DNA from: a virus
Virus record (IMG/VR): IMGVR_UViG_3300010391_000218
Coordinates: 1 to 40,742 of that record
Direction: 5' to 3' (one strand)
DNA length: 40,742 nucleotides
In this document: positions 3,514-40,320 of the stretch, in pieces
How positions within the stretch are numbered: the stretch's first letter is position 1
Layout: each line of letters opens with the position of its first letter
Notes under the pieces: model-generated
Seen by the model: the letters and a program-made list of their open reading frames with translations, nothing else
What the model was told of the DNA's origin: nothing
Database searches by the model: none
Position numbers and translations under genes: made by a program

Positions 3514-4866
3514 ATGTTAAAACAGATCACCAAATTAACGGAAGATCAAAAAGCCAGATTTCCCGAATGGATTGAAAAATGGGTTAAAATAGGCTTACAG
3601 ACTGGCGAAACCGATTGGGACACTTTTGACAAGTATATGCCTATTTGTTATAAAAAAGCCGGTTTAAAATATCCTAAAAATATTGTCCGCGTATCATCAC
3701 CGTTGGTTGGCGGGTTGTCGGCAGCGATAGCTAATAAAATATTACAGCAGAAGCGCGGTGGAGACGCGAAACGAATAAACGCTGTTAGTGTCGCTGTTCG
3801 TGACGCTGTTGATGACGCTATTGGTGTCGCTGTTAGTGTCGCTGTTCGTGACGCTGTTGATGACGCTATTGGTGACGCTGTTGATGGCGCTGTTAGTGTC
3901 GCTGTTCGTGACGCTATTGGTGACGCTGTTGATGACGCTGTTAGTGTCGCTGTTAGTGTCGCTGTTCGTGGCGCTGTTGATGACGCTGTTCGTGACGCTG
4001 TTGATGGCGCTGTTAGTGTCGCTGTTCGTGACGCTATTGGTGACGCTGTTGATGGCGCTGTTGATGGCGCTGTTCGTGTCGCTGTTGGTGACGCTGTTCG
4101 TGACGCTATTGGTGTCGCTGTTGGTATAGGAAAATTAAATTGGCATTACTGGCTGGGCGGCCAGTTTTGGGTAGGAGGCTGGTGGGGGTCTTCTTCTTAT
4201 GTTTCTTTCTTTACTGACATTTGCGGCCTGAAACTTGAAAAAGACATTATGGAAAGAGCAGAAGCATATAGAAAAGTTTGCGAATCAGTAAGTCATATCT
4301 GGCCAAACAGTCATTTCGTTATGGTTTGCGCACGGCCTACTGCGATTCACCGTAATTCAAGGGGAAGGCTGCATAATGAACACGGGAAAGCTATAATTTA
4401 TCTAGATGGCTGGGGCCTATACATGTTAAATGGTGTACGTTTTCCTGAAAAACTTTATAAACAGGTCATTTCACGAAATATGGAAATGAGCGACATTCTT
4501 AAGATTGCCGATATAGACCAAAGGGTACAGGCAATGAAATTCGCCAAATCGGGTTTGCGCGAGTTTTATAAATCTGAAGGCGGCAAACTGGCAGATCATT
4601 ATGTTAAACTTGATGCGAAAGGTCGCCCTGTAAATTATGAGCTTTGGGACATTCCAGCGGGCAAAACATTCAATAGGAATGTAAAATTTGCCATTTATGA
4701 CTGCCCTTCAGCTTTAGAACGGAAAGAAAAAAAGGAATACTCAAAAGGCGTACCCGTGGAATGTAAAACTGTGGCGGAAGCTATCGCGTGGGGCATGTCA
4801 AACGATCATTATCAGTTATCACTTGGGCAATGGAAAAAACTTGTGCCTCTCCATGATGAATCTTAA
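3514..4866 (+). CDS. DUF6745-like protein with a large internal tandem repeat
   Basis: A 450-residue protein. The N-terminus (LTEDQKARFPEWIEKWVKIG) and the middle and C-terminal parts (RPTAIHRNSRGRLHNEHGKA, YLDGWGLYMLNGVRFPE, and VAEAIAWGM near the end) match the DUF6745 architecture as I know it. Function is unknown. Residues 90-205 consist of tetrapeptide repeats of the type AVRD/AVDD/AIGD/AVSV, encoded by 29 tandem 12-bp units. Other family members have a similar position filled by repeats such as SVWD, so a repeat here seems to be a family trait. The repeats probably form an extended alpha-helical or solenoid-like rod. A Trp/Gly-rich segment follows (LGGQFWVGGWWG). It lies 8 bases after the QGDV-type gene. 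Confidence 0.65.
   Translation: MLKQITKLTEDQKARFPEWIEKWVKIGLQTGETDWDTFDKYMPICYKKAGLKYPKNIVRVSSPLVGGLSAAIANKILQQKRGGDAKRINAVSVAVRDAVDDAIGVAVSVAVRDAVDDAIGDAVDGAVSVAVRDAIGDAVDDAVSVAVSVAVRGAVDDAVRDAVDGAVSVAVRDAIGDAVDGAVDGAVRVAVGDAVRDAIGVAVGIGKLNWHYWLGGQFWVGGWWGSSSYVSFFTDICGLKLEKDIMERAEAYRKVCESVSHIWPNSHFVMVCARPTAIHRNSRGRLHNEHGKAIIYLDGWGLYMLNGVRFPEKLYKQVISRNMEMSDILKIADIDQRVQAMKFAKSGLREFYKSEGGKLADHYVKLDAKGRPVNYELWDIPAGKTFNRNVKFAIYDCPSALERKEKKEYSKGVPVECKTVAEAIAWGMSNDHYQLSLGQWKKLVPLHDES
3781..4128 (+). repeat. 12-bp minisatellite, 29 units, in frame inside the DUF6745-like gene
   Basis: The unit is GCT(G/A)TTNNTGNC: variants include GCTGTTAGTGTC, GCTGTTCGTGAC, GCTGTTGATGAC and GCTATTGGTGTC. The last unit (GCTGTTGGTATA) is degenerate. 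Because the unit is four codons, gains or losses keep the frame. Longer blocks of units recur in the same order, indicating unequal crossover or slippage of multi-unit blocks. Confidence 0.95.
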
Positions 4867-5119: not shown

Positions 5120-5320
5120 ATGAAAAATAACTCACAATCAGGCGACACTTCTTTGAAGGCCCATGCAGTCAAAAAGTCTTCAAAGGGGATTTCGAGGCCC
5201 TGTTGTCAATGTGGCAAAGAATTATGGTCGATACTTGCTATTTACAACTATTGTTTTTACGCCTGCCGGAATGAAAGTTGCCCCAACTATAGTTTACTTC
5301 AATTCCCCTATGAAAGTTAA
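5120..5320 (+). CDS. Small zinc-ribbon-like protein
   Basis: A 66-residue protein with two cysteine pairs (CCQCG around residue 28-32 and CRNESC around residue 49-54) spaced as in a zinc ribbon. The last 11 bases overlap the start of the NinG-like gene at 5310, consistent with coupling. A role as a cofactor of the nuclease is possible but not shown. Confidence 0.55.
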   Translation: MKNNSQSGDTSLKAHAVKKSSKGISRPCCQCGKELWSILAIYNYCFYACRNESCPNYSLLQFPYES

Positions 5321-5678
5321 AAAACCAACACTTAAACAATTGAGAGATAAACTCTGGAAACTTGTCAGTTTATATGTGCGGACAAAAGAGACGAACTGTT
5401 ATACCTGTTTAAAGTATCTTGAATTGAAGCAACGTTCTGCCGGACATTTCTGGACGAAAAAAGGACATCCGTATGTACGGTTTGACCTTATGAACGTTCA
5501 TACGCAATGTCTTACATGTAATTCATTCCAAAGCGGCAACCTTGCGAACTATGTCACACGTCTCATAAAAGATTATGGGCTTCCGGCATATAATGAATTA
5601 ACATTAAGAGCCAAGTCAGGCCAACGATTCAGACGTGATGAATTGGAGGCAAAAATCAACATATTTCAATTAAAATGA
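5310..5678 (+). CDS. NinG/Rap-like recombination nuclease
   Basis: A 122-residue protein from the ATG at 5310. A longer upstream reading from 5163 is in frame but overlaps the gene at 5120 and lacks similarity. The order CYTC (30-33), AGHF (44-47), VRFD (56-59), NVHTQC (62-67), CN and SGN is the lambda NinG/Rap signature. That is a zinc-bound HNH-like fold which, in lambda, promotes RecA-independent recombination and processes Holliday-type branched DNA. The length is shorter than lambda NinG (about 200 residues) and matches the compact phage form. It fits with the putative annealing protein at 397. Confidence 0.85.
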   Translation: MKVKKPTLKQLRDKLWKLVSLYVRTKETNCYTCLKYLELKQRSAGHFWTKKGHPYVRFDLMNVHTQCLTCNSFQSGNLANYVTRLIKDYGLPAYNELTLRAKSGQRFRRDELEAKINIFQLK

Positions 5679-10373: not shown

Positions 10374-13157
10374 TTATAATCCATATTTAGCTAAAATATC
10401 ATTGGCAGCGCCTGTTGGTTGCACAGTGCTTGGCTGCGCGCCACCCCCTGTGAATGCTTGTAATAATGCTTGTAATCCTGTTGGCTCTCCCGCGGTGGCT
10501 TCTTCTGGAAATAAAGCTGGCCCAGCTGCTCTTTCAAGTCCCTTAATGGTGGTAAGTCTATTTTGTTTTTTCTGCCTTAATACTTCCTTACCGTCGCCTG
10601 GTTGTGGAAAATATTGTTTTGCCGCAGAATCAAATTCACTTGGAGCAATGGCTGCTCCAGATTCACGTCGAAGTATTGAATTAATAAAATTACGTTCAGC
10701 TTGTTCTTGTTGCTGCATTTCACTTGATTTTAAAACATTGGGAACACTTCTTTGGTATTGAAATGCTGTGAAGTCCTGCCCTTCAATCTTATCCGCCAAT
10801 TGATCGAAAATCTGGTTTGCTTCCTTAGTTCTTTGTGCAAAAATAGCTGTGGTTTTTTCTGCTTCAGTAGGAGGTTTCTGAGGTTTCTCAGGTTTAACTC
10901 CTTTAGTTACCTGTTTAGCTGCCTGTTCTTTTGTTATGGTTTGCTCAGGCTCAGGTGGCATTGAACCAGATGCTAAAACATTTTTAGCAAAAGTCTGAGC
11001 TTTGCTTGGATCATCCGGATAACGCTTTAGGCCTTCAGCATAAGCTTGGCTATAAGTTAAGCTTGGTCTTGTCGACTGTTGCGCTAAAATAGGATTGTTT
11101 TTTGATTTTAATTGATTTTGTATGCCTGGCTTAAATGAGCCAGAAGCAAAACCGCCTCCCTGTTTAACTACATCGCTCAACTTATAAGTTCCGGTTGTGA
11201 TTTTTCCTAAAGATTCGCAGTTTTTACCGCCTTGGCGTTGACATTTATTGATGGCTCCATCTTTATTTGACTCAACAACGGAAATAGTACCGCTAGCAGC
11301 ATCATAATCTGTAACCACTGCGACGTGGCCATAATCCCGATCAGTTTTAACGCCCAGCGGAATTAAAAGTTTATCACCAGGCTTAGGATTATCTCTTTTA
11401 TCTATGTGCGATCTTTTTTCACCCCACGTATTGCCTACCTGCGTAGCTGTTGAAAGACTGGAAGCGAAAATTCCACACCAACCGCCAACTCCGCCAACGT
11501 TAAAAATCTTTTTAAAATCATCATTGTTAAGCATGGAAGTACCTACTGACGTATTGCCAGCAGGTGTATTCTTAAAATAACTCTGCGCAACGCCGCTTGA
11601 GCCAGGACTTACCGCCTGACCTGTGCTTGGATCAAAGATCGTTGTCTCTCCTGTAATAGGATTGAAATTCAGCGTGAACTTTGTACTTGCACCCAAACCT
11701 TCCAGCGTCTCCTGATGTTTAATTTCACCGGTGGTTTTATCCATTGCGACAAAAGTCACGTTACCGGCGTTATCCGTGATCTGGCTGATCTGTAAATTCT
11801 CAGCTTTGGCCTGCTTCTTTAAGTTGTCAAGATTGACTAAAGAGAGTCCAACAGGATAACCAGAACGTTTCTCGAGCATTTGCAACTGTTTCTGCTGCGC
11901 AGGCGTCATCTCCTGCTCAGATAAAGCGAAGGTATTGATTATGTCCTTTATGGTATTCTTGGCGTCCTCTTTTTCCTGCGCACGAGCCTGATGTACCTGT
12001 GCTGCTGCCGTCTGTGAGATGTTGTAACGCGTCTCAAACGAGTCCTGATTGATCTTGGCCACATTGCGTTTGTAATTTCCTTGCGCATCCCTTATGGCAG
12101 ACTGCTTTTCGACCTCGCTCATTTCACGGTCATCCTGAATCTTTGTAACATACTCAAGATATTTATCGTAGTTATCCTGTATGGCATTCTGTTTATTGGT
12201 TTCAATTTTATTAAGGTCTTGCTTATAACCTCTTGTTAAATCATCTATCTTAATGGTTACTTCTCTATCACTTGCTTCTTTCTCAAAAACTACACTATTA
12301 AGCACGCGGTCATTCTGAAGCGTCAAAGACTGCATTTCCTTATTCTTGGCAAGACTTCCATAACCGCCCATGGCGGCTAAAGTAGACTCCATTTCAAGAG
12401 TCCTTTTTGTGTTGCTTAACTGCTGCTCAACGATCTGATCTTCGTAAGCTTTCTTGGTACGGTCACGCTGTAAATCGTATTCCTGTTTGGAGGTCTGCCA
12501 AGCATTCTCGGCATCTTTACGCTGCACATCCGCGCCAGCCTGAAGTGCTTTATTGCGTGCGTCAAGTGTTGTCGCCTGTAACGCCTCAAGTCTATCGAGA
12601 TTAGCCTGCTCCGCGCTATAACGTTCCTTGGAACTCTGAACCATCGCATCACGATAATCGGACTCGGCAGTTAAATTAGCTCCTTTTAAAGCGTTAAGTT
12701 CGTTTAAGTCGTCTTCTGATTGTTTTTTGATTTGGTCAGCTTCGGATGTTGCGTCTACTTCGGTAATGACAGGTGGAGCGGTCGCCGTAGGTTGTGCGGG
12801 TTGTACCGGTGGTTTTACTGCCGGCGGTGGTTTAGCCGGTGCCTGTGTTTCACCTGGTGGGGCCGCTATATTTATCCATGGTGCAGCAGCAGGATTTGGC
12901 TCCTGCTGCATCGGTGGTGGGGGCGGCTTCTGCCTTGCCAAATATTTCTGATAACCTTCTTCAGTAGCGAAAGCGCTGCGTGGACTCTTAACCTGCGGCT
13001 TAGGCAAAGCAGCCTTAACAGGTGCAATTGCAGGCTTAATGGCAGGCTTAACCAAACTAGGCATTGGCCGCACTTGCTGCAAGGCCGCGCGTGGCCTTTG
13101 TGGTGGCGCAACCCGTCTTGCAGGCATTGGTGTTCTTAATGGTCTTGTAATAGGCAT
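10374..13157 (-). CDS. Large internal virion protein with CHAP amidase/endopeptidase domain
   Basis: A 927-residue protein. Residues 1-130 are Pro/Ala/Lys-rich and disordered, and about 135-440 are a long coiled coil. Residues about 550-665 form a CHAP-like domain with C561 (GGWCGIFAS), H611 (DYGHVAVV) and polar VESN near 628-631. Residues 832-855 carry ESGAAIAPSEF and QYFPQPGD, a block I know from the C-termini of phage internal or tail-tip enzymes. The likely role is local peptidoglycan cutting during DNA ejection, with the coiled coil as a virion scaffold. The gene is 2 bases from its downstream neighbour at 8602-10371. Two further Cys near 639-647 in the CHAP region (NKCQRQGGKNC) may form a disulphide. 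Confidence 0.75.
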   Translation of the reverse strand: MPITRPLRTPMPARRVAPPQRPRAALQQVRPMPSLVKPAIKPAIAPVKAALPKPQVKSPRSAFATEEGYQKYLARQKPPPPPMQQEPNPAAAPWINIAAPPGETQAPAKPPPAVKPPVQPAQPTATAPPVITEVDATSEADQIKKQSEDDLNELNALKGANLTAESDYRDAMVQSSKERYSAEQANLDRLEALQATTLDARNKALQAGADVQRKDAENAWQTSKQEYDLQRDRTKKAYEDQIVEQQLSNTKRTLEMESTLAAMGGYGSLAKNKEMQSLTLQNDRVLNSVVFEKEASDREVTIKIDDLTRGYKQDLNKIETNKQNAIQDNYDKYLEYVTKIQDDREMSEVEKQSAIRDAQGNYKRNVAKINQDSFETRYNISQTAAAQVHQARAQEKEDAKNTIKDIINTFALSEQEMTPAQQKQLQMLEKRSGYPVGLSLVNLDNLKKQAKAENLQISQITDNAGNVTFVAMDKTTGEIKHQETLEGLGASTKFTLNFNPITGETTIFDPSTGQAVSPGSSGVAQSYFKNTPAGNTSVGTSMLNNDDFKKIFNVGGVGGWCGIFASSLSTATQVGNTWGEKRSHIDKRDNPKPGDKLLIPLGVKTDRDYGHVAVVTDYDAASGTISVVESNKDGAINKCQRQGGKNCESLGKITTGTYKLSDVVKQGGGFASGSFKPGIQNQLKSKNNPILAQQSTRPSLTYSQAYAEGLKRYPDDPSKAQTFAKNVLASGSMPPEPEQTITKEQAAKQVTKGVKPEKPQKPPTEAEKTTAIFAQRTKEANQIFDQLADKIEGQDFTAFQYQRSVPNVLKSSEMQQQEQAERNFINSILRRESGAAIAPSEFDSAAKQYFPQPGDGKEVLRQKKQNRLTTIKGLERAAGPALFPEEATAGEPTGLQALLQAFTGGGAQPSTVQPTGAANDILAKYGL

Positions 13158-37142: not shown

Positions 37143-37967
37143 ATGCAATATACAATCCAAGGCTACTTTGACTACATTAAAGAACGCCAAAAAATCTACA
37201 AATTAAAATCTTCTGGCGCAAAGTCGCCATGGACTGATGATCTTATTCTGCAAAAATATAAATTCTGCAATGTTTATCGTCATCTTGACGCGGGCACGCA
37301 GTGGTACATGCAAAATATTGGCCGGTTTCAAAAAGCAGAAAGCCCAGCGATAGCTTTATGGAAAACAATTCTTTATAGAACCATCAATAATCCTAAATTC
37401 TTTGAATTTGCAGGATTTCCTCAACCTAATGAGCCAAGTGAAATTCAAGAACATATCCAAAAAGCAAGAGAATGGATCATTAAAGGCAACCACTTCCGGT
37501 CAGATGCCTATTTAATTCTTTATCCTCCAAAATATGGACATTCTAAAGTAGAACAGTATGGTAAGGCTATTATGAAATTATCAAATGAATTAACTCATAT
37601 AACGGAAAGTGTTTTAGATAGCAAAACAGCAAAAGAAGCTTGGCAAGAATTACAGGCAGCAGATGGTGTTGGCCCTTTCATAGCTTATGAAATATGGTGT
37701 GATCTTGTTTTGTGTGGCTATTTGAAATGGACAGAAGATGATTTTGTAAATGTGGGCCCAGGTGCAAAAGCGCCTCTTACTGCATTATATCCTGGAATAA
37801 ATGAACAGTTGGCCATGAAAGCGTTACAAGCTAAACAGAACCAATATTTATCAGGAATGAAATATTTAACTTTGCGAAGCATAGAGCACAATTTATGTGA
37901 ATATCGTAAATATGTAAATCTTTCAAATGGAAAAGGTAAAAAACGTCACTTTAATCCTAATTTATGA
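37143..37967 (+). CDS. HMUDK helical-domain / thymine pyrophosphorylase-like DNA hypermodification enzyme
   Basis: A 274-residue protein. PWTDDLILQKYKFCNVYRHLD around residues 29-49, a helix-hairpin-helix near 170-186 (LQAADGVGPFIAYEIWCDL), the DDFVNVGPGAKAPL motif at 199-212 and a C-terminal EHNLCEYRKY with a basic tail. These are hallmarks of the alpha-glutamyl/putrescinyl thymine pyrophosphorylase and 5-hmdU DNA kinase helical-domain family. It is a DNA-glycosylase-like fold used by hypermodifying phages. Known members act on modified pyrimidines in DNA by attaching or transferring amino-acid groups. Which activity this has cannot be read from sequence. The gene's stop overlaps the methyltransferase start by 4 bases (ATGA). 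Confidence 0.75.
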   Translation: MQYTIQGYFDYIKERQKIYKLKSSGAKSPWTDDLILQKYKFCNVYRHLDAGTQWYMQNIGRFQKAESPAIALWKTILYRTINNPKFFEFAGFPQPNEPSEIQEHIQKAREWIIKGNHFRSDAYLILYPPKYGHSKVEQYGKAIMKLSNELTHITESVLDSKTAKEAWQELQAADGVGPFIAYEIWCDLVLCGYLKWTEDDFVNVGPGAKAPLTALYPGINEQLAMKALQAKQNQYLSGMKYLTLRSIEHNLCEYRKYVNLSNGKGKKRHFNPNL

Positions 37968-38671
37968 AAATAATCTCACCAGCTTTAATTGAAATAAATG
38001 GCTTACAATTTTATGTTCGTCCTGAAACATCAGACTTTAAAGCCATTAAGGAAGTGATTATAAAAAATAGTTATGAAACAAGAGATTTTAAAATTCTTCC
38101 AAATGAAAAATGGCTGGATTTTGGCGCTCACATTGGCGCATTTACTATTCTTGCTCTTTCCAAAGGGGCAAAAGTAATTGCTTTTGAGCCTAGCCCTGAT
38201 GCTGTTGCTATATTAAAGGATAATCTTGCGCTAAATAATCTTACTTGTAACATTTTTGAAGTTGCAGTTATCGCTGGCACCGCATGCCAAATGCCATTTT
38301 ACATAAATTCTGTTTATGGCAATACTTGGCGCAATTCTGTTGTAAAGAAATATACTAGAGGCCAAGAAACGATAGTGCAAGCTATTAATTACCGTGATTG
38401 GCTAGAAGATAATATTTGTATAAAAATGGATATTGAAGGTAGTGAATTTTCTATTCTTGAAGATTTTCCTGAAGATATCAAAATCAAGAAATTAGTATTT
38501 GAGGCTTCATTTGACATTGAGCCAGATCTGAAAAGATTTTGGGCTATCATTGAAAAATTAAAGAGAATCTTTAGTCACGTAAAAGTAGCTAGTCGTGTAC
38601 CAAAAGATAAAGATATTTGGCTGCAAAATTGGTTGCCAGCTTGCCAATTAATTTATTGTTGGAATGAATAA
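37964..38671 (+). CDS. FkbM-family SAM-dependent methyltransferase
   Basis: A 235-residue protein with a Rossmann SAM-binding site: motif I WLDFGAHIGAFTI (50-62), motif II VIAFEPSP (71-78) and the FkbM hallmark IKMDIEGSEFSIL (153-165). FkbM enzymes methylate O atoms of small molecules, sugars or other substrates, and phages use them rarely. Coupled by ATGA overlap to the preceding hypermodification gene. A tailoring role on the modified base is inferred; methylation of a sugar or metabolite is an alternative. Confidence 0.85.
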   Translation: MKIISPALIEINGLQFYVRPETSDFKAIKEVIIKNSYETRDFKILPNEKWLDFGAHIGAFTILALSKGAKVIAFEPSPDAVAILKDNLALNNLTCNIFEVAVIAGTACQMPFYINSVYGNTWRNSVVKKYTRGQETIVQAINYRDWLEDNICIKMDIEGSEFSILEDFPEDIKIKKLVFEASFDIEPDLKRFWAIIEKLKRIFSHVKVASRVPKDKDIWLQNWLPACQLIYCWNE

Positions 38672-38692
38672 TATTTCTTAACCAATCATATT

Positions 38693-39217
38693 ATGCGTTT
38701 ATGCATATTGGAAGGTGTAGATGGAGTTGGCAAAACAACACTTGCGAAACTTCTAAACGATAAAAACGCTGAATCAATGGTTGCCCATTGGTCTGCGCCG
38801 CCTTCGGATGTTAACGCATTTGATTATTGGAAAGATTTATTGAGATCAAATTTTGATCAATGCGCTAAAGCAGGTGCTGAATTAGTTATTTGGGATCGTT
38901 CATTTCTGGGCAATTATATTTATGGCAATTTTAAAAAGGATCAACCAACATTATCATTTGACCAGATAATTGAATTATGGCGCTTTATAAGTAATATTTA
39001 TAGCCAAGTTGATGTTTATTTATTGCGTTGCACTTGGAAAGAATTACAAAATCGCTTTAGGCAAAAAGAGGAAACTTATGTTACTTTTGATGACGCCTAT
39101 GAATTGCAGCAAAATTATGTAACATTATTGTCTGATTTATTTCAATTAAATAATGTGAATCTCTATATTATGCCTAAAGATTTATCATCTAAAAATTTAT
39201 TAAAAGTAATCAAATAA
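38693..39217 (+). CDS. dTMP-kinase-like P-loop kinase
   Basis: A 174-residue protein. P-loop EGVDGVGKTT at 7-16, catalytic WDRSFLG at 67-73, and RFRQKEETY lid-type segment at about 122-130. These match thymidylate kinases and phage P-loop kinases. It is shorter than E. coli Tmk (about 210). It may phosphorylate a modified dNMP or, as in hypermodifying phages, the hydroxyl of a 5-hydroxymethyl base in DNA. Leader CTTAACCAATCATATT with no SD. Confidence 0.8.
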   Translation: MRLCILEGVDGVGKTTLAKLLNDKNAESMVAHWSAPPSDVNAFDYWKDLLRSNFDQCAKAGAELVIWDRSFLGNYIYGNFKKDQPTLSFDQIIELWRFISNIYSQVDVYLLRCTWKELQNRFRQKEETYVTFDDAYELQQNYVTLLSDLFQLNNVNLYIMPKDLSSKNLLKVIK

Positions 39218-39223
39218 TATACT

Positions 39224-39388
39224 ATGTTTATCAAGGGCCATAAAATTTGGCTAGGGCGTAAGCATTCAAAAATAACGCGCCTTAAAATGAGCCTTGCTGC
39301 GCAGGGCCAATTAAAATTAATATGTGTTAAAATTGCGCGGGAATATTTATCGCGCAATACGCCGCTGCCTTTTATTTTATTCTTCTAA
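39224..39388 (+). CDS. Possible small basic protein (54 aa)
   Basis: ATG at 39224 to TAA 39386-39388. Basic, with hydrophobic tail (FIKGHKIWLGRKHSKITRLK, and LPFILFF). It fills the 182-base gap between kinase and synthase genes, and no family is known. An 8-bp hairpin (ATTGCGCG/CGCGCAAT, about 39332-39358) lies inside and may be regulatory instead. Confidence 0.3.
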   Translation: MFIKGHKIWLGRKHSKITRLKMSLAAQGQLKLICVKIAREYLSRNTPLPFILFF

Positions 39389-39399
39389 CAAGCATAACT

Positions 39400-40320
39400 T
39401 TGCACGCAGATAATGTAGATACAATTTATCCTAAACTTATTAGAAGTATTATCGAAAATGGCAAGCCTGCAGGCCCGCGCGGTATGCCCGTAAGGGAAAT
39501 CTATGATGTTGGATTTAAAATTAATGATGGTTGTGCGACAATCATCACAAGTCCGCATCGGAAAGTTAATATGGCGTATATGGCTATAGAAATGCTGGGC
39601 CTGTTACGCCACGGCAAGAAAAATGTTGAGCCATATCTTTGGTATAATTCGCAGATGGCAAAATATTTGAATCCTAAAACCGGTGAGTGGGATGGCAGTT
39701 ATGCTACACGTCTCACAACCTATGATCAAATGCGTAAAGTATATAAAATCCTGAAAGCCGATCCTCATAGCCGAAGAGCCATCCTCAGCTTCTATAATCC
39801 CGCCCACGACAAAGAGCTTGCTTCATTAGATCATAGCTGTACGTTGAATCTCATATTTAGGTTAAGAGATGGGAAATTACACCTGACTTCAACAATGAGA
39901 TCGAATGATGTAATGCTTGGTGTGCCATATGATTTTTCGCAATTCTCTTTTCTTTTATCAGTACTTGCTTGTTGGCTGGAAGTTGGAGTAGGTACTTTTT
40001 ATTATTTTGTAGCAAACCTGCATGCTTATGAAAAAGATATTGCCAAACTCAAAATCATAGCTGACGCTCCTTGGCCAAAAGCATTTGAGGTGTCAAAATG
40101 GACTCACATGCGCTTATGGGATATTCCTGATGTAGAAGAGACGTTTGCACAAGTGGAACGCTTCTTTTGTCTCGAATATGCTATGAGGCAATTAAAGAAA
40201 ATAGGGCCACCACAGATCGAAACTTTAATCCACGATTACAAAATCACTTCTGAAGTGCTAAAAAGTCTTTTGCGAGATGTTTTATGGCCATATGTAACGC
40301 GTAAATTAAAGATAAGCTGA
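39400..40320 (+). CDS. Thymidylate synthase / pyrimidine hydroxymethylase homologue
   Basis: A 306-residue protein. The nucleophile C147 is in LDHSCT, R125/R126 in HSRRAILSFYNP, the RSND box is 167-170 and LHAY is 207-210 (H208, Y210). The E. coli equivalents are C146, R126/R127, R166-D169, H207 and Y209. At 178 the GVPYDF motif has Asp where E. coli TS has dUMP-reading Asn177, as in T4 dCMP hydroxymethylase (Asp179). It likely makes 5-hydroxymethyl-dCMP (or an altered dUMP product) from methylene-tetrahydrofolate for DNA base modification. The N-terminus is not fixed: no ATG is available near it, and TTG at 39400 is the best start. Confidence 0.85.
   Translation: MHADNVDTIYPKLIRSIIENGKPAGPRGMPVREIYDVGFKINDGCATIITSPHRKVNMAYMAIEMLGLLRHGKKNVEPYLWYNSQMAKYLNPKTGEWDGSYATRLTTYDQMRKVYKILKADPHSRRAILSFYNPAHDKELASLDHSCTLNLIFRLRDGKLHLTSTMRSNDVMLGVPYDFSQFSFLLSVLACWLEVGVGTFYYFVANLHAYEKDIAKLKIIADAPWPKAFEVSKWTHMRLWDIPDVEETFAQVERFFCLEYAMRQLKKIGPPQIETLIHDYKITSEVLKSLLRDVLWPYVTRKLKIS

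What the first reader, a model, noticed from the sequence alone, without database searches (positions are those of the whole stretch)
37143..40320. Compact DNA-base hypermodification cassette
Four clues cluster in about 3 kb: a TS/hydroxymethylase homologue, a dTMP-kinase-like P-loop kinase, an HMUDK-helical/thymine pyrophosphorylase-like protein and an FkbM methyltransferase. Known thymine-hypermodifying phages use a hydroxymethylase, a 5-hmdU DNA kinase and an amino acid:DNA transferase of this fold. The combination with FkbM and a separate kinase is, to my knowledge, not a described pathway. It predicts a new modified base in the virion DNA.
Basis: partly seen in the sequence, partly recalled or inferred. 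Interest (0 to 1): 0.82.

Follow-up and report, generated by a model that had tools for sequence, protein, structure and literature searches.

The report
Cytosine-type DNA hypermodification gene cassette
A phage fragment carries four adjacent genes that most likely build a modified cytosine (not thymine) in its DNA, including a methyltransferase whose relatives in other phages sit almost always beside a different enzyme that also makes hydroxymethyl bases, which points to an untested, probably methylated, DNA base.

Summary
The four genes are real and adjacent (37143-40320, +): HMUDK_hel (PF18723, E 2e-45), FkbM methyltransferase, thymidylate-kinase-like kinase, thymidylate-synthase-like hydroxymethylase. 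'DNA-base hypermodification cassette' holds; 'thymine' probably does not. The hydroxymethylase has the T4 dCMP-hydroxymethylase residues (Asp178 = T4 Asp179; Asp144 = T4 Asp145); 74 of 75 TS homologues beside other HMUDK_hel genes have Asn at the deciding position. The kinase's relatives sit beside Asp-type enzymes in 57 of 57 cases, so it is best read as a hydroxymethyl-dCMP kinase. The FkbM protein's closest relatives adjoin TET/JBP dioxygenases in 79 of 80 viral contigs; the exception, L091, repeats the FkbM-kinase-hydroxymethylase trio without HMUDK_hel. Best model: dCMP to 5hm-dCMP to 5hm-dCTP to DNA, with FkbM methylating the 5-hydroxymethyl group or its derivative (simplest product 5-methoxymethylcytosine) and HMUDK_hel adding a further step. 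Three other contigs combine thymine-hypermodification proteins with Asp-type hydroxymethylases, so cytosine versions recur. Shown: homology, residues, gene order. Inferred: all chemistry. No published description was found, but key source papers were not readable here. The cassette lies about 420 bases from a contig end and may be truncated.

The parts
37143..37967 (+). HMUDK_hel (PF18723, also called aGPT-Pplase1) protein, 274 aa: probable base-acting or transferase component with a DNA-glycosylase-like fold
   Evidence: Pfam E 1.9e-45; AlphaFold pLDDT 89.9; Foldseek best PDB matches 8z2m 5-PmdU glycinyltransferase and MjOgg; core residues kept, but 7 positions invariant in 45 relatives are changed (W201F, A202V, R210A, G211P, R214A, D255R, R259N)
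37964..38671 (+). FkbM-family SAM methyltransferase, 235 aa, of the TET/JBP-associated phage subfamily
   Evidence: PF05050 E 5.4e-13; AlphaFold pLDDT 94.2, class I methyltransferase fold; relatives adjoin TET/JBP in 79 of 80 contigs; tree places it with L091 inside the TET-linked set
38693..39217 (+). Thymidylate-kinase-like P-loop kinase, 174 aa, predicted 5-hydroxymethyl-dCMP kinase
   Evidence: Walker A EGVDGVGKTT and DR motif; PF02223 E 6.9e-6, just below cut-off; relatives sit beside Asp-type hydroxymethylases, 57 of 57 TS-like proteins found; best PDB profile match YorR 2axp, E 4e-14
39400..40320 (+). TS-family pyrimidine hydroxymethylase, 306 aa, predicted dCMP 5-hydroxymethylase; TTG start uncertain (frame open 23 codons further upstream)
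   Evidence: PF00303 E 6.6e-25; best PDB match MilA CMP 5-hydroxymethylase, E 1e-21; D144, C147, T148, D178, Y101 as in T4 gp42; 52% identical to L091

Best explanation
A cytosine hypermodification cassette. (1) The TS-like protein converts dCMP to 5-hydroxymethyl-dCMP. (2) The TMK-like kinase converts it to the diphosphate and a host kinase to 5hm-dCTP, which is incorporated into phage DNA. (3) The FkbM protein uses SAM to methylate the 5-hydroxymethyl group or a group derived from it, in DNA or on the nucleotide; the simplest product is 5-methoxymethylcytosine. (4) HMUDK_hel, an accessory absent from the otherwise matching trio in L091, engages the modified base and adds or licenses a further substitution at the same exocyclic carbon. 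The likely benefit is protection from host nucleases. Shown: homology, diagnostic residues, gene order and recurrence. Inferred: substrates, order of steps, product and purpose. Step 1 (cytosine) is the firmest, step 3 moderate, step 4 weak.
For: Asp at the T4 Asp179 position, plus Cys-Thr, in window and L091 as in T4 gp42; Asn and Cys-Asn in SPO1 gp29, M6 and 74 of 75 TS proteins of other HMUDK_hel loci. PMC6400193: Asp179 decides dCMP over dUMP, and an Asp three residues before the Cys marks hydroxymethylases against methylating TS (window D144). PMC8670742: E. coli TS positions 177 and 147, the same two sites, best separate cytosine-modified from unmodified phage contigs. Kinase relatives sit with Asp-type enzymes 57 of 57. 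FkbM adjoins TET/JBP in 79 of 80 contigs, as ParB-FkbM-TET just upstream of terminase, with no other conserved tailoring gene; L091 has only FkbM, kinase and hydroxymethylase, with no HMUDK_hel, HMUDK, ADDT or TET match. L242 (ADDT-phosphatase-HMUDK-kinase-Asp-type TS), L193 (HMUDK-methyltransferase-kinase-Asp-type TS) and L179 (HMUDK_hel and Asp-type TS) show hypermodification proteins in cytosine-type settings.
Against: No biochemistry; the product is a guess from gene content. HMUDK_hel otherwise goes with Asn-type (hmU) enzymes. T4 Ser94 is Gly in the window, though also Gly in 32 of 61 Asp-type proteins. No C5-methyltransferase (PF00145) was found in 11 of 13 TET-FkbM contigs or in the two cultured phages tested, so their TET may act on thymine; FkbM may not be tied to cytosine. 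No polymerase was recognised in the window and no dCTPase was specifically sought. The contig is linear and may lack further cassette genes. Locus counts are not phylogenetically independent.
Confidence: 0.55

Rival explanations
1. Thymine hypermodification: the TS homologue makes 5-hm-dUMP, and HMUDK_hel and FkbM elaborate 5-hmdU in DNA.
For: HMUDK_hel is normally found with dUMP-type hydroxymethylases (74 of 75), and a different FkbM subfamily occurs in such loci (L015, L039, L051, L065).
Against: The only TS homologue in the record has Asp178 and Thr148; the kinase partner class is exclusively Asp-type in this sample; no HMUDK or ADDT match in the record (the ADDT model rang in none of the records or controls of that search).
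Confidence: 0.12
2. Cytosine base, but FkbM acts late: HMUDK_hel first installs an amino acid or another group on 5hmC, and FkbM methylates that adduct (amine, hydroxyl or carboxyl).
For: HMUDK_hel and FkbM genes overlap by 4 bases; HMUDK_hel resembles a glycinyltransferase in fold; known pathways add amino acids and then sculpt them (Lee et al. 2022, from memory).
Against: FkbM occurs without HMUDK_hel in L091 and in the TET modules, so it has substrates without that step.
Confidence: 0.2
3. The TS homologue is a dCMP methylase (making 5mC, as in phage Xp12) rather than a hydroxymethylase, and FkbM and HMUDK_hel act elsewhere.
For: Asp at this position also converts a true TS into a dCMP methylase (work cited in PMC8670742).
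Against: The hydroxymethylase signature Asp three residues before the Cys is present; TS proper has Leu there (PMC6400193).
Confidence: 0.07
4. FkbM and HMUDK_hel are cargo not linked to base modification; FkbM methylates a glycan or another metabolite.
For: Most characterised FkbM enzymes are O-methyltransferases of natural products or sugars (general knowledge; no tool result).
Against: 79 of 80 closest viral relatives adjoin TET/JBP and the other adjoins the hydroxymethylase; gene overlap and conserved order.
Confidence: 0.06

Closest known systems
Thymidine hypermodification cassettes of phages M6, ViI, phiW-14, SP10
   Same: HMUDK_hel (M6 gp55), a TS-family hydroxymethylase and a separate kinase in one cluster
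   Different: dCMP-type instead of dUMP-type hydroxymethylase; no HMUDK (PF18748) and no ADDT (PF18724) match; nucleotide-type kinase; FkbM instead of PLP, radical SAM, FAD or acetyltransferase sculptors
T4-type 5-hydroxymethylcytosine pathway (gp42 dCMP hydroxymethylase, dNMP kinase, glucosyltransferases)
   Same: Asp179-type hydroxymethylase and a nucleotide kinase
   Different: TMK/YorR-like kinase, tailoring by FkbM and HMUDK_hel instead of glucosyltransferases, and no polymerase recognised in the record
5-carbamoyloxymethylcytosine system found by MetaGPA (PMC8670742)
   Same: Asp177-type TS homologue plus one tailoring enzyme acting on 5hmC; there the enzyme also used 5hm-dCTP
   Different: The tailoring enzyme is a carbamoyltransferase, not a SAM methyltransferase; no HMUDK_hel is described
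ParB-FkbM-TET/JBP module upstream of terminase in cyanophages (MED4-117, P-HS2), pelagiphage HTVC112P and many uncultivated phages
   Same: Same FkbM subfamily, beside an enzyme expected to make a 5-hydroxymethylpyrimidine
   Different: Hydroxymethyl group made on DNA by a dioxygenase instead of on the nucleotide; no kinase or HMUDK_hel
Marine HMUDK_hel-TAGT-TS loci, including pelagiphages (PMC9599517)
   Same: HMUDK_hel with a hydroxymethylase, mostly without a recognised DNA kinase
   Different: Tailoring by a TET-associated glycosyltransferase (PF20691); the hydroxymethylase is Asn-type (hmU)

Membership tests
T4-type dCMP hydroxymethylase | Catalytic Cys (T4 Cys148) | tested here: met
   Window C147
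T4-type dCMP hydroxymethylase | Asp at T4 179 (E. coli TS 177), cytosine specificity | tested here: met
   Window D178; Asn in SPO1 gp29 and in 74 of 75 TS proteins of other HMUDK_hel loci
T4-type dCMP hydroxymethylase | Asp three residues before the Cys (T4 Asp145), hydroxymethylation signature | tested here: met
   Window D144
T4-type dCMP hydroxymethylase | Ser94 and Tyr96 water network | tested here: inconclusive
   Tyr met (Y101); Ser94 is Gly, as in 32 of 61 Asp-type proteins
T4-type dCMP hydroxymethylase | Produces 5-hydroxymethyl-dCMP | not testable with these tools
   Needs an enzyme assay
Thymidine hypermodification cassette (M6/ViI type) | dUMP-type hydroxymethylase (Asn) | tested here: not met
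   D178, and only one TS homologue in the record
Thymidine hypermodification cassette (M6/ViI type) | 5-hmdU DNA kinase PF18748 | tested here: not met
   No match in the record; the model does match M6 gp54. The contig may be incomplete
Thymidine hypermodification cassette (M6/ViI type) | Amino acid:DNA transferase PF18724 | tested here: inconclusive
   No match in the record (where the model also missed the weak copy in L242 seen by direct scan), nor by the local profile
HMUDK_hel (PF18723) | Profile match over nearly the full length | tested here: met
   E 1.9e-45, profile positions 4-275 of 281
HMUDK_hel (PF18723) | Invariant core residues | tested here: inconclusive
   Most kept, but 7 positions invariant in 45 relatives are changed
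FkbM methyltransferase (PF05050) | Profile match, SAM-binding motifs, class I fold | tested here: met
Thymidylate kinase / dNMP kinase | Walker A EGxDGxGKT and DR motif; family score | tested here: inconclusive
   Motifs present; PF02223 26.3 bits against a cut-off of 27; profile matches YorR and TMK in PDB
MetaGPA 5cmC system | Carbamoyltransferase next to the Asp-type TS homologue | tested here: not met
   None of the cassette genes or immediate neighbours matches one

The most novel reading that the evidence does not exclude
The phage-type FkbM subfamily is a general methyltransferase of 5-hydroxymethylpyrimidines in viral DNA, used after two unrelated ways of making the hydroxymethyl group (TET/JBP on DNA, dCMP hydroxymethylase on nucleotides), and the window belongs to an undescribed class of cytosine hypermodification systems that reuse proteins of the thymine hypermodification machinery; its product would be a DNA base not yet reported, such as 5-methoxymethylcytosine or a further derivative.
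Probability: 0.4. Interest if true: 0.85.

Novelty: new variant of a known kind. Interest (0 to 1): 0.66.

Why it matters
Known amino-acid-type hypermodifications are on thymine, and known elaborations of 5-hydroxymethylcytosine are mainly sugars and carbamoyl. A cassette that joins a dCMP-type hydroxymethylase to a hypermodification protein and a SAM methyltransferase would extend the chemistry of viral DNA. It names a candidate enzyme family (phage FkbM) that can be tested directly, because cultured cyanophages and a pelagiphage carry relatives. A methyltransferase that caps 5hmC could also be a useful reagent for epigenome sequencing. The residue check is a simple correction for automated annotation: HMUDK_hel presence alone does not prove thymine modification.

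Tried and rejected
Thymine reading: rejected as first choice on the TS residues. Kinase as 5-hmdU DNA kinase: rejected; it does not match PF18748, aligns poorly with HMUDKs, and L193 and L242 hold both kinds. TET loci as a source of 5mC-derived 5hmC only: not supported, PF00145 absent from most. Claim that HMUDK_hel needs a DNA kinase: rejected, only about 15 of 80 HMUDK_hel contigs show one nearby. A single-sequence scan of viral contigs with HMUDK_hel found nothing; alignments were needed. A scan of prokaryote genomes with FkbM found nothing. PDB sequence search with HMUDK_hel found nothing. Papers by Iyer 2013, Lee 2018, Lee 2022 and Wen 2024 were not held. Literature searches for FkbM in base modification and for 5-methoxymethyl bases gave nothing relevant; this is weak evidence of absence. 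Whether the seven HMUDK_hel substitutions reflect cytosine specificity could not be decided, since Spounavirinae members with Asn-type TS also depart at some of those sites.
Full report
What is there. The window is a 40,742-base linear IMG/VR virus record without terminal repeats. Four + strand genes lie at 37143-40320. Pfam assigns HMUDK_hel (PF18723, E 1.9e-45), FkbM methyltransferase (PF05050, 5.4e-13), a thymidylate-kinase-like P-loop protein (PF02223, 6.9e-6, just below cut-off) and a thymidylate-synthase homologue (PF00303, 6.6e-25). The record is a tailed phage (terminase, portal) whose terminase is closest to Pseudanabaena phage Pam1 at 44%. No family A polymerase was found by the local profile.

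Known reference cassettes. Scanning M6 and Rhizobium phage TM26 shows the standard thymine set: ADDT (PF18724), HMUDK kinase (PF18748), HMUDK_hel and TS homologue, plus sculpting enzymes (gene names for the M6-like phage SN1 in PMC9476957). PMC6449724 states the route: 5hmdU in DNA is phosphorylated by a 5hmdU DNA kinase and then substituted. The window has HMUDK_hel and a TS homologue, but no match to HMUDK or ADDT. The ADDT search rang nowhere, not even at the weak L242 copy later seen by direct scan, so ADDT absence is less certain. HMUDK_hel without a nearby HMUDK is common: about 15 of 80 HMUDK_hel contigs show one. In the marine loci a TET-associated glycosyltransferase (PF20691, confirmed for two members of a 44-member cluster) lies between HMUDK_hel and TS.

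Which base. The TS homologue was aligned with T4 gp42, SPO1 gp29, M6, LysYB1 and others. At T4 Asp179 the window and L091 have Asp; SPO1, M6 and the HMUDK_hel-linked enzymes have Asn. Over 136 proteins the pattern is clear: 74 of 75 TS homologues in other HMUDK_hel loci are Cys-Asn with Asn (one has a gap at the site), while all 57 TS homologues found in loci of kinase relatives have Asp, 52 of them with Cys-Thr. TS state played no part in choosing either set. PMC6400193 gives Asp179 as the dCMP determinant and an Asp three residues before the catalytic Cys as the mark of hydroxymethylation; the window has both (D178, D144). PMC8670742 found E. coli positions 177 and 147, the same two sites, to be the top separators of cytosine-modified from unmodified phage contigs, with Asp at 177 in the modified ones. 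The best PDB match is the CMP hydroxymethylase MilA. The record has a single TS homologue. I conclude that the enzyme most likely makes 5-hydroxymethyl-dCMP.

The kinase. Profile comparison places it with YorR and thymidylate kinases. Relatives sit next to TS homologues, dCMP deaminases and polymerases in most of 80 contigs. L193 and L242 hold both this kinase and an HMUDK, so the roles differ. It is best read as the kinase for 5hm-dCMP.

FkbM. In 79 of the 80 closest viral contigs the FkbM gene adjoins a TET/JBP dioxygenase, usually as ParB-FkbM-TET followed by the terminase. The TET label comes from a local profile; Pfam matched four of five members checked, two of them above its cut-off. 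No other tailoring gene is conserved there. The 80th contig, L091, has FkbM, kinase and TS homologue in the window's order, again Asp-type, and lacks HMUDK_hel, HMUDK and TET matches. In a tree the window and L091 form one branch inside the TET-linked set; FkbM proteins of four Asn-type HMUDK_hel loci form another. The shared feature of the two settings is a 5-hydroxymethylpyrimidine, so that group or its derivative is the most economical substrate. The model is confident (pLDDT 94) and has the class I methyltransferase fold, with nucleic-acid methyltransferases among the best matches, which fits but does not prove the role.

HMUDK_hel. The predicted structure (pLDDT 90) has as best PDB match the phage 5-PmdU glycinyltransferase gp46 (8z2m, probability 0.98, E 0.14, TM 0.43), then 8-oxoguanine and 3-methyladenine DNA glycosylases. 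Seven positions invariant in 45 relatives are changed. Its exact reaction is unknown; in this cassette it is probably an extra step.

Recurrence. L242 has ADDT (E 1.1e-6), a phosphatase, HMUDK, the kinase and an Asp-type TS; L193 has HMUDK, a different methyltransferase, the kinase and an Asp-type TS; L179 has HMUDK_hel, a radical SAM protein, the kinase and an Asp-type TS. The L242 TS is nearest to the window and L091 in the tree (support 80). Cytosine-type hypermodification cassettes therefore seem to recur.

Limits. All chemistry is inferred. The cassette ends about 420 bases from the contig end. Locus counts include near relatives and come from the best 80 hits per search. The main source papers on hypermodification pathways could not be read, so novelty rests on searches of an open-access library and on memory.

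Noticed in passing
L242:3988-7843, L193:2-2566, L179:852-9419: Other viral contigs combine thymine-hypermodification proteins (ADDT, HMUDK, HMUDK_hel) with Asp-type, presumably dCMP, hydroxymethylases and the same kinase family.
   Followed up: partly
L092-L170, L002, L003: A compact ParB-FkbM-TET/JBP module sits just upstream of the terminase large subunit in about 73-81 of 81 loci, mostly without a C5-methyltransferase in the records tested; an uncharacterised base-modification module in its own right.
   Followed up: partly
L039:7977-14752: A large HMUDK_hel locus with FkbM, an acyl-carrier-like protein, a radical SAM protein, a GT61 glycosyltransferase, a TAGT-like glycosyltransferase, TS homologue and HD protein.
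   Followed up: no
L015:8791-9120: A cupin-like small protein lies between HMUDK_hel and FkbM in L015 (relative in L020).
   Followed up: no
39218-39399: 182-base gap before the hydroxymethylase with a GCGCG/CGCGC inverted repeat; the reading frame is open 23 codons upstream of the TTG start, so the true start is uncertain.
   Followed up: no
10946-11034: ARAGORN calls a tRNA-Leu (CAG) on the - strand inside a 927-aa open frame on the same strand; probably spurious.
   Followed up: no
3514-4866 and 5163-5678: DUF6745 protein and NinG recombination nuclease on the + strand at the left end, possibly the same early region if the genome is circularly permuted.
   Followed up: no
L198:3569-4891: One TS homologue has Asp at the deciding position while keeping Cys-Asn and grouping with Asn-type enzymes, a possible separate switch of base specificity.
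   Followed up: no
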